Shown here one piece after another: positions 29,768-34,461 of a stretch of DNA of 64,000 nucleotides. The notes under the pieces were generated by a model. The model saw nothing but the letters and a program-made list of their open reading frames with translations, was not told the origin of the DNA and ran no database searches. How positions within the stretch are numbered: position 1 is the stretch's first letter; each line of letters opens with the position of its first letter. The translations under genes and the position numbers were made by a program. The DNA is from Thermogemmata fonticola (GTDB lineage: Bacteria > Planctomycetota > Planctomycetia > Gemmatales > Gemmataceae), in assembly GCF_013694095.1 (NCBI RefSeq), contig NZ_JACEFB010000001.1, positions 620,001-684,000 of the forward strand. The letters run 5' to 3'.

Positions 29768-30742
29768 TTACTTGGCTGGCGGGTAGTGCTTGAGGCAATC
29801 TTCTACCAAGGTCAGGTATTCCGGGGTGACCTCCTTGAAGCATTCTAGTTGCCAGAAGTGGGTGAAGGTGCGCCCGATGGGGGTTTTGTGGCAGGAGAGC
29901 AGCCCCTCCCGGATTTTGGCAATTTGTTCCGGGGTCAGGGAGCCTTGCCGCCAGACGATGACCGCAGGAGGCAACGGGGGCGATTGAGCCAGCACCTTGA
30001 GTTTCTGGGCCAAGCCGGGTTTGAGTTCCCGATAGGCTTGTAGGGTGCCGATGTCCACCAGGGCGGCCACACAGGTACCCGCCACCACCGCATCGAGAAC
30101 TTCCTCGGCGGACTGACCGGCTGGTTTCATCGGGCAGCAATCGCCCGTAGGAATGGCCGGATCGTTGCGGAGGCGTTCGAGGAACAGGAGGCAGTGGGCC
30201 TTGCAACCGCGGGGAATGGCAATGCAGGCTCCCTTGAGCTGCTGCGGCCCCTGAGCGGGGCAGTCAGTGTGGACCACCAGGCAAGCTTGCACGCGCCCGC
30301 AGGTGGGATGGGTCACCACCAGAGGAACGATGCCGGGCGTGTCCTTGATCCACGCATACTCGAAACCGTGGAAGACGCCGATTTCCAATTTACCGTCGCG
30401 GAGTTGTTCCGCCAGGGCCTTATAGTCGGGGACGACCACCATGTCCCCATGCAGGCCGAGTTCCTTATGGAGGGTCTTTTTGAAGGGGGTGGCCGCCGCC
30501 TGAATGAGGACTTCGGGCACATCCCGGAATAGACCAGCGGGAAAGCCCACGCGGATGAACTGAGCCGGCTGGGCCGGTGTTCGGGCCGCGGGGGAGGCAA
30601 CGGTGCTCGATACCGTTGCCGGGGTTGCTGCTGGGGCCGGTGCGGCGTTAGTATCCGCCGCCGGCGTGGAAAGAAGTGAGGAAAGAAAGAGGAGTGTCGC
30701 TCCACTGGAGCCTGCCCAAACGTACATTCTGCCACGGATCAC
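29768..30742 (-). CDS. PhnD-like periplasmic substrate-binding protein, cysteine-rich
   Basis: The 324-residue protein has an N-terminal hydrophobic signal (GATLLFLSSLLSTPAADT), an Ala/Pro/Thr-rich linker and a type 2 periplasmic-binding fold of the phosphate/phosphonate-binding (PhnD) family: IRVGFPAGLF, VPDYKALAEQLRDGKLEIGVFHGFEYAW, GACIAIPRG. The mature part has 12 Cys, many clustered at about residues 145-205 (including HCLLF and GDCCPMKP), which is unusual for this family. No permease or ATPase gene is adjacent, so it may bind a ligand for signalling or redox use rather than feed an ABC importer. A GTG start with GGAGCAGG upstream is used; an in-frame ATG lies 15 bases downstream. Confidence 0.75.
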   Translation of the reverse strand: MIRGRMYVWAGSSGATLLFLSSLLSTPAADTNAAPAPAATPATVSSTVASPAARTPAQPAQFIRVGFPAGLFRDVPEVLIQAAATPFKKTLHKELGLHGDMVVVPDYKALAEQLRDGKLEIGVFHGFEYAWIKDTPGIVPLVVTHPTCGRVQACLVVHTDCPAQGPQQLKGACIAIPRGCKAHCLLFLERLRNDPAIPTGDCCPMKPAGQSAEEVLDAVVAGTCVAALVDIGTLQAYRELKPGLAQKLKVLAQSPPLPPAVIVWRQGSLTPEQIAKIREGLLSCHKTPIGRTFTHFWQLECFKEVTPEYLTLVEDCLKHYPPAK

Positions 30743-31062: not shown

Positions 31063-32517
31063 CTACGGCTTCGGGACTGTTGGACTCGACGAAGGGAGTG
31101 CCCGTCCGGGGAAGGCCGGCGTAATTCCTCCCGCGGTGATGCGTTCCAAAGCGGCCAGTGCCAGCAAGTGTTGATAGACCGCTTCCACATAGTCGGCTTG
31201 GGCCTTGGCTGCCAGCACTTCCACCTGGTAAATCTGCTCCCGTCCCGTTTTGGCCAGGGGAATATTTTTCCGGGCCAGTTTGAGCAGCTCGATAGCCAGG
31301 TCGTTCTTTTCTTTGGCCAACCGGACTTTTTCACTCGCCAGTTCAAATTCCAGGTAGCCGTTTTCCGCCTCCAGAGTGATGAGGCTGCGGACATTGTCAT
31401 ACATCGCCTCGGCTTTTTGACTGAAGTCCAGCGCACGGGCGACCCGATCGTATTTGCTTCCGACTAATTGGGTGGGCATCTCCGGGATAATTCCGCCGGG
31501 CCGGTATTCCTTGCCGCGTTGGGCCTGGGGTACGTCGCGGGAGTGGAGGTCAGCCCCGGAGGCGAAGGTGGGCACAACCCGCCGGAACGGGATGCGGCTT
31601 TGGGCATACACTTCCAGGCGGAAAATATCAACCCCAGCCGCGGCTAAAGCTAGCTCTGGGCGGCGGGCCAAGGCGAGTTGCACCACCTTCTCCCGCGTGA
31701 CCTCCGCCATTTGAGCCATGACTGGCAATTCCTTATCTTTCAGGCGGAAAGCGAAGTCTGGCTCGACGTGCATCAGTTGCCGCAGGGCTGCCTTGGCCCG
31801 CTTGCGCCCCACGATCGCCGTCGCTTGTAACTGCTTGGCTTCACGCAGGCCGATCTTGACCGTCAGCACTTTTTCCGTGGTCAAGCCGCCCAATTCATCC
31901 GGCGTAGTCGCCTTTTTGATGATGTTTTCCAAAATTTCGATCAAATCTTGGAGTTGTTCCACGACTTCGTCGGCGATGGCCTTTTGCTGCTGGGCATAAA
32001 CGGCCGTGTAATACAAGCGGATAGTGTCTTCCACGAGTTCATTGTGCACTCGCTGATACTCTCCGGCCGCTCCTTCGAGGCCGCGCTGGGCTTGCTGCTT
32101 GCGGACTTCCAAATCCGGGCTGAGCAGGGTTCCCACGGTCCCGAAGCGGAGCAACGCCCGGTAGCCTCCTTCGCTGGCAGCAATGCTGGCCTTGACGGCC
32201 TTGAGGTGGGGATGTCGCTCGATCACCAGAGCAATGCACTCTCCCAGGGACAGTTCGGGGCCAGTTTCGGCTTCCTCGACCACTGGTTGCTGAAGGGTTT
32301 CCAGTGGGGCTGACTCCGCGGCGACCGGCAGGAGTTGCTGCCAGCGTTGCAAATGGGGCCAATCCGGTCGGGCGGCAGTTCGTGATGGCGTGAGGGAGTG
32401 GGCGGCGGTCCCTTGACGAGCCGGTGGCTGGCTCCAGCTCACCGGGGCCAACAGACAGCCCGCCATCATTCCCAGAGCAGTCATTCCGAGGAAGCGGCGC
32501 GTACAACTCCGTGGCAT
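31063..32517 (-). CDS. TolC-family outer membrane efflux protein
   Basis: The 484-residue protein is a periplasmic/outer-membrane channel candidate. After an N-terminal signal (FLGMTALGMMAGCLLAP) comes a Pro/Gln-rich stretch, then two helical repeats typical of outer membrane efflux proteins: SLGECIALVIERHPHLKAVK opening the first, and VQLALARRPELALAAAGVDI opening the second, each followed by long amphipathic helices. TolC trimers form the exit duct of efflux pumps or type I secretion systems. No membrane-fusion or pump gene is adjacent, so its partner is unknown. Length is normal. It is divergent from the Clp-N/ThiE fusion, with 180 bases between starts. Confidence 0.87.
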   Translation of the reverse strand: MPRSCTRRFLGMTALGMMAGCLLAPVSWSQPPARQGTAAHSLTPSRTAARPDWPHLQRWQQLLPVAAESAPLETLQQPVVEEAETGPELSLGECIALVIERHPHLKAVKASIAASEGGYRALLRFGTVGTLLSPDLEVRKQQAQRGLEGAAGEYQRVHNELVEDTIRLYYTAVYAQQQKAIADEVVEQLQDLIEILENIIKKATTPDELGGLTTEKVLTVKIGLREAKQLQATAIVGRKRAKAALRQLMHVEPDFAFRLKDKELPVMAQMAEVTREKVVQLALARRPELALAAAGVDIFRLEVYAQSRIPFRRVVPTFASGADLHSRDVPQAQRGKEYRPGGIIPEMPTQLVGSKYDRVARALDFSQKAEAMYDNVRSLITLEAENGYLEFELASEKVRLAKEKNDLAIELLKLARKNIPLAKTGREQIYQVEVLAAKAQADYVEAVYQHLLALAALERITAGGITPAFPGRALPSSSPTVPKP

Positions 32518-32697: not shown

Positions 32698-34461
32698 ATG
32701 GAGTACTTGCTCAGCCCCGGCGCCGAACGGGCTATGACCGCTGCCCAAAGCTGGGCGGCACGCCTCGGTTCGGAAATTGTACAGCTTACCCACTTTATCT
32801 TAGCCCTGCTCGACGAAGAGGAAGGGCGGGTTGCCCAATTGCTTCACCGCCTTGGCCTGTCCCCCGATCGGCTGCGGGAACAACTCCTCGCTCTGCCCCC
32901 CGCTCCCCCCGTTCCCTCCCCGGAAACCTTGCTGGCCCTGGCACGGGACTGGTCCCTCTCTTGCCGACAAGACCCCCAAGTGCTGACCGATGCCCTATTG
33001 CTGGCGGTGCTCCAAATGGACCCTCAATACGCCGCTGCCGTTGCCCCCTTGGGCCTGGATTTGCCTCGTCTCCAGGCCGCTGTGCTCCCCGCTTCCCCTG
33101 CCCCGGAATCCGCCGCGGAATCCACCCCATACCCTCTCTCGCAGGCTTGGCCGTCGCCGCTGCCCCCGCCACCCTCCGAGACTTCCCCTCGTGCTACGAC
33201 GACCAGCCCGACAGCAGAATCGGCCCCGCCGCCTGCCCCCCAACTCACCCTGGAACCAATCCAAAATGCGCCTTCGTATCCCCCGCCGGATGCGTCCTCG
33301 GTTTCCTCAACCTCTGTCCTGATCTCTCCAGCTTCTGCCGCGCCCGCCGTGTTCGACGCCGTTGCTCCACCCTTGCCCTTGCTGCGGGTGCTGGATACCA
33401 ACTGCAACCGGGCACGCGAAGCCCTGCGGGTCCTGGAGGACTTTTGCCGCTTTGTCCGTAACGATCCCTCTTCAACCGAAGAGGTCAAAACGCTGCGGCA
33501 CGACTTCGCCCGCTGGGAACAGCGACTGCCCCTGTCGCTTCGCCTTTCCGCCCGCGATACCCCCGCGGATGTCGGAACGACTCTCACCGCTGCTGGCGAA
33601 TATCAGCGCGCGTCCTTAGAACATGTCTGCCAAATCAATCTGAAGCGCTTGCAGGAAGCGCTGCGCAGCCTGGAAGAGTACGGCAAGCTCCTTGATCCCT
33701 CCTGGGCGAAACACGCCGAGCAATTCCGCTACCGCACCTATCACTTGGAAGGGCGCTTGCTCCATTCTTCCCGGCGGCAGCAACTCTTGGCTCAAGCCCG
33801 CCTCTACTGGCTCTTCACCCCTTCGGCGGCAGGAGAACGTTGGGAATGGCGGCTGGAACAGGCCTTAAGCGGCGGAGTGCAGGTCGTCCAATTACGGGAA
33901 AAACACCTGGCTGATCGAGCTTGCCTGCAACTGGCCCAAGCTCTGCGGCGGCGTTGCCACCAGGCCCGCGTATTGTTCCTCGTCAACGATCGACCGGACC
34001 TGGCTTTGTGGTCGGAAGCCGATGGCGTCCATTTGGGGCAGGACGATCTGCCAATCGCTCAGGCCCGCCATCTGTTGGGCAGGGAAGCTCTCATCGGGGT
34101 CAGTACCCACACGATCGAGCAGGTCCATCAAGCGTGGCAACAAGGGGCGGACTACATCGGCATCGGTCCGGTATTTCCGTCACAAACTAAGGCATTCGAT
34201 CATTTCCCCGGCCTGGAGTTTGTGCGGCAAGCGACGGCGGTGTCGGTGCGTCCGGCCTTCGCGTTAGGAGGGATCACACCGGAGAATCTCCTCCACGTGC
34301 TGGCCGCGGGTGCCCGCCGCATTGCGGTCTCGGCTTGCCTGTCTCAGGCCAGCGATCCCGCTTCCATCGCCGCCCAACTCCGCGCCCTCCTCGACTCCTA
34401 TGCGCTACCAGGTGTCAATTCCGTGGACTCAAGTGGGCCCGCCCCCGTCCCGGCGCCTTAA
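32698..34461 (+). CDS. thiE: Thiamine-phosphate synthase with N-terminal Clp-N and ThiD2-like domains
   Basis: The 587-residue protein has three parts. Residues 1-130 contain two helical repeats, SPGAERAMTAAQSWAARLGS...LTHFILALLDEEEG and a degenerate second copy at about 73-130, matching the Clp repeat (Clp-N) domain of ClpA/ClpC chaperones. A Pro/Ser/Ala-rich linker follows (131-228). Residues about 229-350 (VLDTNCNRAREALRVLEDFC, LKRLQEALRSLEEYGK) match the helical domain found before ThiE in planctomycetes and Aquificales (ThiD2 family, by recollection). ThiE fills 360-575: VVQLREKHL, LVNDRPDLAL, GVHLGQDDLP, GVSTHT, YIGIGPVFPSQTK, FALGGI. ThiE couples the pyrimidine and thiazole phosphates to thiamine phosphate. 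The Clp-N fusion is unexpected. I see no TPP riboswitch upstream. Confidence 0.88.
   Translation: MEYLLSPGAERAMTAAQSWAARLGSEIVQLTHFILALLDEEEGRVAQLLHRLGLSPDRLREQLLALPPAPPVPSPETLLALARDWSLSCRQDPQVLTDALLLAVLQMDPQYAAAVAPLGLDLPRLQAAVLPASPAPESAAESTPYPLSQAWPSPLPPPPSETSPRATTTSPTAESAPPPAPQLTLEPIQNAPSYPPPDASSVSSTSVLISPASAAPAVFDAVAPPLPLLRVLDTNCNRAREALRVLEDFCRFVRNDPSSTEEVKTLRHDFARWEQRLPLSLRLSARDTPADVGTTLTAAGEYQRASLEHVCQINLKRLQEALRSLEEYGKLLDPSWAKHAEQFRYRTYHLEGRLLHSSRRQQLLAQARLYWLFTPSAAGERWEWRLEQALSGGVQVVQLREKHLADRACLQLAQALRRRCHQARVLFLVNDRPDLALWSEADGVHLGQDDLPIAQARHLLGREALIGVSTHTIEQVHQAWQQGADYIGIGPVFPSQTKAFDHFPGLEFVRQATAVSVRPAFALGGITPENLLHVLAAGARRIAVSACLSQASDPASIAAQLRALLDSYALPGVNSVDSSGPAPVPAP

What the first reader, a model, noticed from the sequence alone, without database searches (positions are those of the whole stretch)
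32698..34461. Clp-N repeat domain fused to thiamine-phosphate synthase
The first 130 residues carry the double helical Clp repeat used by ClpA/ClpC to bind adaptors and degron-bearing substrates, followed by a long linker, a ThiD2-like domain and a complete ThiE. A biosynthetic enzyme with a protease-adaptor-binding domain could be a target of regulated proteolysis, or a sensor that reports thiamine status to the Clp machine. The ThiD2-ThiE pairing is known; the Clp-N addition is, as far as I know, undescribed.
Basis: partly seen in the sequence, partly recalled or inferred. Interest (0 to 1): 0.7.

Follow-up and report, generated by a model that had tools for sequence, protein, structure and literature searches.

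The report
Vitamin B1 enzyme wearing Clp N-domain
In the bacterial class that includes Gemmata (Planctomycetia), the enzyme that assembles vitamin B1 carries at its front a complete copy of the recognition domain normally found on protein-unfolding Clp machines; the fusion is real, ancient and kept by selection, but what the extra domain does is not yet known.

Summary
ORF 32698-34461 (587 aa) encodes a complete double-repeat Clp N-domain (residues 1-132), a disordered Pro/Ala/Ser-rich linker, ThiD2 (230-351) and ThiE (376-546). Clp_N passes Pfam's cut-off (45.5 vs 20.7 bits). The AlphaFold model of the domain (pLDDT 95) aligns end to end with ClpC/ClpB N-domains (VIA Z up to 16.8).

It is not a local oddity. 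In 119 Planctomycetia genomes, 92 carry the fusion, 24 lack Clp_N and 3 are partial. Planctomycetota outside the class have only ThiD2-ThiE. The domain is under purifying selection (dN/dS about 0.06-0.12). One genome has lost ThiD2, has an ordinary ThiD, yet keeps Clp_N fused straight to ThiE. In other families clpC lies head-to-head with this gene.

One of the two phosphoarginine-pocket glutamates of ClpC is lost (0 of 61); the other position stays acidic (55 of 61). My best reading is a repurposed Clp recognition domain that docks the enzyme onto a partner of the ClpC proteolysis network (ClpC, McsB and ClpS are all encoded). Partner and effect are inferred; ClpS cannot be the universal partner. 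No description was found in the literature searched. New variant of a known kind.

The parts
32698..34461 (+). ORF: Clp_N - linker - ThiD2 - ThiE fusion protein, 587 aa
32698..33093 (+). Clp N-domain, two repeats, residues 1-132 (helices 7-22, 30-39, 44-51, 56-64, 75-90, 97-107, 109-118, 122-129)
   Evidence: Pfam Clp_N 8.5e-12; AF2 pLDDT 95.3; Foldseek prob 1.00 to ClpC/ClpB N-domains; VIA Z up to 16.8
33094..33363 (+). disordered Pro/Ala/Ser-rich linker, residues 133-222
   Evidence: mostly pLDDT < 50; long form only in this genus and a few relatives
33385..33750 (+). ThiD2 domain (alternative HMP-P kinase), residues 230-351; the only ThiD2 in the genome, and no canonical ThiD found
33823..34335 (+). 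ThiE (thiamine-phosphate synthase) domain, residues 376-546; QLREK, NDR, GQ, STH and TK motif residues largely invariant in 30 orthologues
31063..32517 (-). divergent TolC-like outer-membrane efflux gene, the same upstream neighbour seen in several Gemmataceae-type relatives (not part of the fusion)
   Evidence: sequence reading of the ORF and of L010, L014, L017, L023, L030

Best explanation
An ancient fusion put a complete Clp N-domain in front of the bifunctional ThiD2-ThiE enzyme in the ancestor of the class Planctomycetia, or early within it. SHOWN: the domain, its class-wide distribution, purifying selection, its presence on ThiE alone in one genome that has no ThiD2, and the head-to-head position of clpC in several families. 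INFERRED: the domain came from a local duplication of a Clp N-domain, plausibly clpC's own. INFERRED: it now serves as a docking domain that ties the enzyme, by its ThiE part, to a partner in the ClpC proteolysis network (ClpC itself, an adaptor, or arginine-phosphorylated clients), so that the turnover or activity of the thiamine-forming step follows proteolytic status. The catalytic job (HMP-P to HMP-PP by ThiD2, then coupling to thiazole phosphate by ThiE) follows from the families and is most likely unchanged.
For: Clp_N above cut-off and Clp N-domain fold over both repeats. Fusion in 92 of 119 class genomes; other classes have ThiD2-ThiE only. dN/dS of the Clp_N part 0.06-0.12 in the unsaturated pairs of moderate divergence. 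G048: Clp_N joined directly to ThiE, no ThiD2 in the genome, canonical ThiD present, so the domain goes with ThiE. clpC divergent and adjacent in many f4 genomes, in f6 genomes, in G048 and in named Pirellulales/Planctomycetaceae/Pirellulaceae contigs, about 0.3-1.2 kb between starts where measured. In G308 a further stand-alone multi-repeat Clp_N protein sits between clpC and the fusion gene, showing local N-domain duplication. The partner machinery is encoded: ClpC and ClpB, two ClpS, a PF00217 arginine kinase in 38 of 41 genomes, whose G040 member passes a protein-arginine-kinase cut-off. The T7-equivalent is Ser/Thr in 61/61 and the E106-equivalent acidic in 55/61. The 61 ThiE N-domains form one group in the tree. 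Precedent: the thiamin enzyme THIC was enriched in an Arabidopsis CLPC1 trap (PMC8889267).
Against: No interaction, turnover or activity data. The E32-equivalent of the first phosphoarginine pocket is never Glu (0/61); the E106-equivalent is also fully conserved in ClpB, so it may be structural. clpC adjacency was not seen in the Gemmatales and Isosphaerales loci examined, including the window's genome. Twenty-four class genomes lack the domain, so it is dispensable. Profile scores do not say whether ClpC or ClpB was the donor. ClpS cannot be the universal partner: G045 and G050 have the fusion and no ClpS match.
Confidence: 0.42

Rival explanations
1. The Clp N-domain has left the Clp world: it is an ordinary protein-interaction or oligomerisation module that binds another thiamine-pathway protein or the enzyme's own catalytic part, with no link to proteolysis.
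For: Family-specific conserved charges absent from ClpC and ClpB: R11 in 55/61 (Lys in ClpC), E/D42 in 58/61 (Ser/Thr in ClpC), R/K44 in 45/61 (Val in ClpC). E32 lost. Not adjacent to clpC in Gemmatales.
Against: Independence from proteolysis does not explain the head-to-head clpC neighbourhood in several families. The variable and sometimes very long linker argues against a fixed docking to the catalytic part.
Confidence: 0.33
2. Passenger domain: a fusion fixed by chance near clpC, tolerated and folding-constrained but without a dedicated function.
For: Absent in several lineages (all 14 f6 genomes, 4 of f100, 2 of f8, 2 of f4, f99, f101). Usually evolves faster than ThiD2 and ThiE. Some orthologues (L008, L014, L017, L019) score weakly.
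Against: Kept in 92 of 119 genomes over a whole class; dN/dS about 0.1 in every unsaturated pair of moderate divergence; present on ThiE in G048 although the ThiD2 module is gone; non-core charged residues are conserved.
Confidence: 0.18
3. Decoy or sponge: the domain captures ClpC ligands (phosphoarginine clients, adaptors, ClpC-targeting peptides), as the Clp_N protein ClpC2 of mycobacteria captures cyclomarin, and the enzyme is only a carrier.
For: Same fold as ClpC2 (8ad9, Z 15.8). ClpC2 sequesters cyclomarin A (PMC10030653). Acidic E106-equivalent kept.
Against: One pocket glutamate lost. A sponge must outnumber ClpC (ClpC2 reaches 84-fold excess; PMC10030653), which is unlikely for a vitamin enzyme. 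Does not explain the fidelity to ThiE.
Confidence: 0.07

Closest known systems
ThiD2-ThiE fusion enzymes (NCBIfam PRK02615; cyanobacteria, other Planctomycetota)
   Same: Same ThiD2 and ThiE domains in the same order, 384 bits against PRK02615
   Different: They begin at ThiD2; here about 130 residues of Clp N-domain plus a linker precede it
ClpC / ClpB N-terminal domain
   Same: Both repeats, same fold; T7 and E106 positions mostly kept as Ser/Thr and Glu/Asp
   Different: No AAA+ module follows; the E32 position is not Glu; own conserved R11, E42, R44
Mycobacterial ClpC2 (Clp N-domain away from the AAA+ ATPase)
   Same: A Clp N-domain free of the AAA+ motor, structural match Z 15.8
   Different: ClpC2 has a different N-terminal part and represses its own gene (PMC10030653); here the domain is on a metabolic enzyme
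Plant/algal ClpT (CLPT1, CLPT2, CLPT4)
   Same: Clp_N-like domain without an AAA+ motor; structural match Z 13-14
   Different: Known (own knowledge) as plastid Clp-core accessory proteins; no enzyme attached

Membership tests
Clp_N (PF02861) | Profile match above the curated cut-off | tested here: met
   45.5 bits on residues 1-141, cut-off 20.7; 27 of 30 orthologues match at E <= 0.1
Clp_N (PF02861) | Two four-helix repeats with the ClpA/B/C N-domain fold | tested here: met
   Eight helices, pLDDT 95.3; Foldseek prob 1.00; VIA Z 16.8, rmsd 2.6, 131 aligned to 3fh2
ClpC-type phosphoarginine reader | Glu32 equivalent in repeat 1 | tested here: not met
   0 of 61 Glu; Thr31 in the window protein
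ClpC-type phosphoarginine reader | Glu106 equivalent in repeat 2 | tested here: inconclusive
   Acidic in 55 of 61 (Asp98 here), but also invariant in ClpB, so not diagnostic
Clp/Hsp100 unfoldase | AAA+ ATPase module | tested here: not met
   No AAA+ family in the Pfam scan of the whole protein
ThiD2 (PF17792) | Profile match, and the only HMP-P kinase candidate in the genome | tested here: met
   133 bits, cut-off 23.5; no PF08543 match in G000, one ThiD2 match
ThiD2 (PF17792) | HMP-P kinase activity | not testable with these tools
   Needs an enzyme assay
ThiE (TIGR00693) | Equivalog match and conserved catalytic motifs | tested here: met
   187.8 bits, cut-off 145.1; QLREK, NDR, GQ, STH, TK residues largely invariant in A1
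ClpC2-type Clp_N protein | ClpC2's own non-homologous N-terminal part ahead of the Clp repeats | tested here: not met
   Here Clp_N starts at residue 1 and is followed by ThiD2-ThiE; ClpC2 anatomy from PMC10030653

The most novel reading that the evidence does not exclude
A Clp N-domain has become a regulatory module of a metabolic enzyme: it reads the state of the ClpC-McsB proteolysis system, through one remaining phosphoarginine-type pocket or direct contact with ClpC, and couples vitamin B1 synthesis to protein stress across a whole bacterial class.
Probability: 0.2. Interest if true: 0.8.

Novelty: new variant of a known kind. Interest (0 to 1): 0.55.

Why it matters
Clp N-domains are known as the substrate- and adaptor-receiving part of protein-unfolding machines, or as accessory proteins without a motor. 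A class-wide, selected fusion to a biosynthetic enzyme suggests that they can be used as portable docking or regulatory domains, and gives a defined protein with natural comparisons (lineages without Clp_N; one genome with Clp_N on ThiE alone) for testing whether thiamine synthesis is tied to the ClpC system.

Tried and rejected
TPP riboswitch as an alternative regulator: Rfam finds only a tRNA in the window. Donor of the domain: ClpB profiles score better than ClpC profiles in all but 3 of 61, but the ClpC profile is very narrow (Neff 1.3), and ClpC and ClpB sequences score alike against the ThiE N-domain profile (69 vs 67 bits), so the donor stays open. ClpS as universal partner: rejected, no match in G045 and G050. 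Shared CIRCE heat-shock element in the clpC-thiE intergenic regions: none, best matches are no better than in random sequence. Chance or frame error: rejected, the same fusion is open in dozens of genomes. The paper I remember as describing ThiD2 is not held. One pair (L001/L002) in the dN/dS script used a wrong domain boundary; the correct Clp_N identity is 65% over 132 residues. dN/dS of nearly identical pairs (L012/L138) is too noisy to use.

Full report
WHAT IS THERE. The ORF at 32698-34461 (+) encodes 587 residues. Pfam finds Clp_N, ThiD2 and TMP-TENI in that order; NCBIfam recognises residues 228-566 as the known ThiD2-ThiE fusion. The first 132 residues are a complete Clp N-domain: residues 1-141 alone reach 45.5 bits (cut-off 20.7) with two stretches. 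A profile of 21 such domains finds ClpC, ClpB, ClpA, ClpV, Hsp104 and ClpT chains in the PDB by sequence, best E 3e-21. The AlphaFold model has eight helices at pLDDT 95.3. Foldseek gives ClpC and ClpB N-domains at probability 1.00, and VIA-align gives Z 16.8 with 131 residues aligned to 3fh2 (a Corynebacterium Clp-type protease subunit) and 14.3 to 5hbn, the ClpC N-domain with bound phosphoarginine. In the full-length model the linker is mostly unstructured.

HOW FAR IT REACHES. All 59 genomes searched first have a match, with a separate N-terminal match in many, and 30 aligned orthologues all start with the Clp-like domain; 27 of 30 match Clp_N at E <= 0.1. Over the phylum, most genomes of the same class match the model from its start, whereas members of other classes match only from the ThiD2 part. 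In 119 genomes of the class, 92 have the domain, 24 do not and 3 match from position 65-78 (my tally of the table). The 24 are all 14 genomes of family f6, four of f100, two of f8, two of f4 and the single members of f99 and f101. Families are unnamed in that collection; named contigs suggest that f1 is Gemmataceae (a Gemmataceae contig, L138, is almost identical to G012 of f1) and that f6 is Pirellulaceae-like (L094, a Pirellulaceae contig, lacks Clp_N but has clpC next door). Cyanobacteria, Phycisphaerae, Gastranaerophilales and Omnitrophota on the named list match only the ThiD2-ThiE part.

SELECTION AND A NATURAL EXPERIMENT. dN/dS of the Clp_N part is 0.06-0.12 in unsaturated pairs of moderate divergence, usually above ThiD2 but far below 1. 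In genome G048 the protein is 418 residues from stop to stop: Clp_N followed almost directly by ThiE. That genome has no ThiD2 match at all and has a canonical ThiD (E 1.5e-82), whereas the window's genome has ThiD2 and no canonical ThiD. The simplest reading is that ThiD2 became redundant and was removed, and Clp_N was kept with ThiE. It is one genome, the only one held of its family.

THE clpC NEIGHBOURHOOD. In many f4 genomes, in f6 genomes, in G048 and in three named contigs (L071, L076, L094), clpC is the divergent neighbour of this gene, with about 0.3-1.2 kb between the starts where both could be located. f6 keeps the neighbourhood without the domain. In G308 a stand-alone protein with several Clp repeats lies between clpC and the fusion gene. 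This makes local duplication of clpC's N-domain an attractive origin, but profile comparison cannot separate a ClpC from a ClpB donor, and in the Gemmatales and Isosphaerales loci examined, the window's genome included, clpC is elsewhere. The 61 ThiE N-domains form one group against ClpC and ClpB, as expected of a single origin, though the domain is short.

FUNCTIONAL RESIDUES. ClpC reads phosphoarginine with two pockets that depend on E32 and E106, with T7 also at these sites (PMC12583610). In 61 ThiE N-domains the T7 position is always Ser or Thr, the E106 position is Glu or Asp in 55, and the E32 position is never Glu. ClpB, not known to me as a phosphoarginine reader, also keeps the E106 position, so this is not proof of binding. 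Three charged positions (R11, E42, R44) are conserved here and absent from ClpC and ClpB, pointing to a partner or contact of this family's own.

WHAT IT PROBABLY DOES. The enzyme should make HMP-PP and thiamine phosphate, as its families do; [quoted passage not shown] The Clp domain is best seen as a docking domain. I favour a partner in the ClpC network because of origin, neighbourhood and the presence of ClpC, an McsB-type arginine kinase and ClpS, and because a thiamin enzyme is a candidate client of a plant ClpC (THIC in the CLPC1 trap, PMC8889267). A partner outside proteolysis is nearly as likely. ClpS is excluded as the general partner.

NOVELTY. Full-text searches for this combination found nothing; the library lacks most subscription papers, and automatic domain databases may list the architecture. 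ThiD2-ThiE fusions and Clp N-domains without an AAA+ motor are known; the combination, its class-wide history and its clpC neighbourhood appear not to have been described.

Noticed in passing
L056:418-1194 (-), genome G308: A stand-alone protein with several Clp repeats lies between clpC and the Clp_N-ThiD2-ThiE gene.
   Followed up: partly
L188 (G050, 277 aa), L189 (G004, 196 aa), L190 (window genome C15, 175 aa), L203 (window genome C9, 170 aa, weak): Other Clp_N proteins without an AAA+ motor in the class, one of them fused to a UVR motif (L189); functions unknown.
   Followed up: partly
window 31063-32517 (-): TolC-like gene divergent from the fusion gene; the same neighbour is seen in several Gemmataceae-type relatives (L010, L014, L017, L023, L030).
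   Followed up: no
L154 and G048: Clp_N fused directly to ThiE with ThiD2 missing genome-wide and canonical ThiD present.
   Followed up: yes
L206 (G027:C118): The fusion gene appears split by a frame shift in this draft genome; assembly error or pseudogene not resolved.
   Followed up: no
G022:C67:11992-13478: A PF00217 (McsB-type) arginine kinase gene lies next to clpC on the same strand, reminiscent of the mcsB-clpC order in Firmicutes.
   Followed up: no
window 29768-30742 (-): PhnD-like periplasmic binding protein ORF with a Cys-containing stretch near its middle (from reading the sequence only).
   Followed up: no
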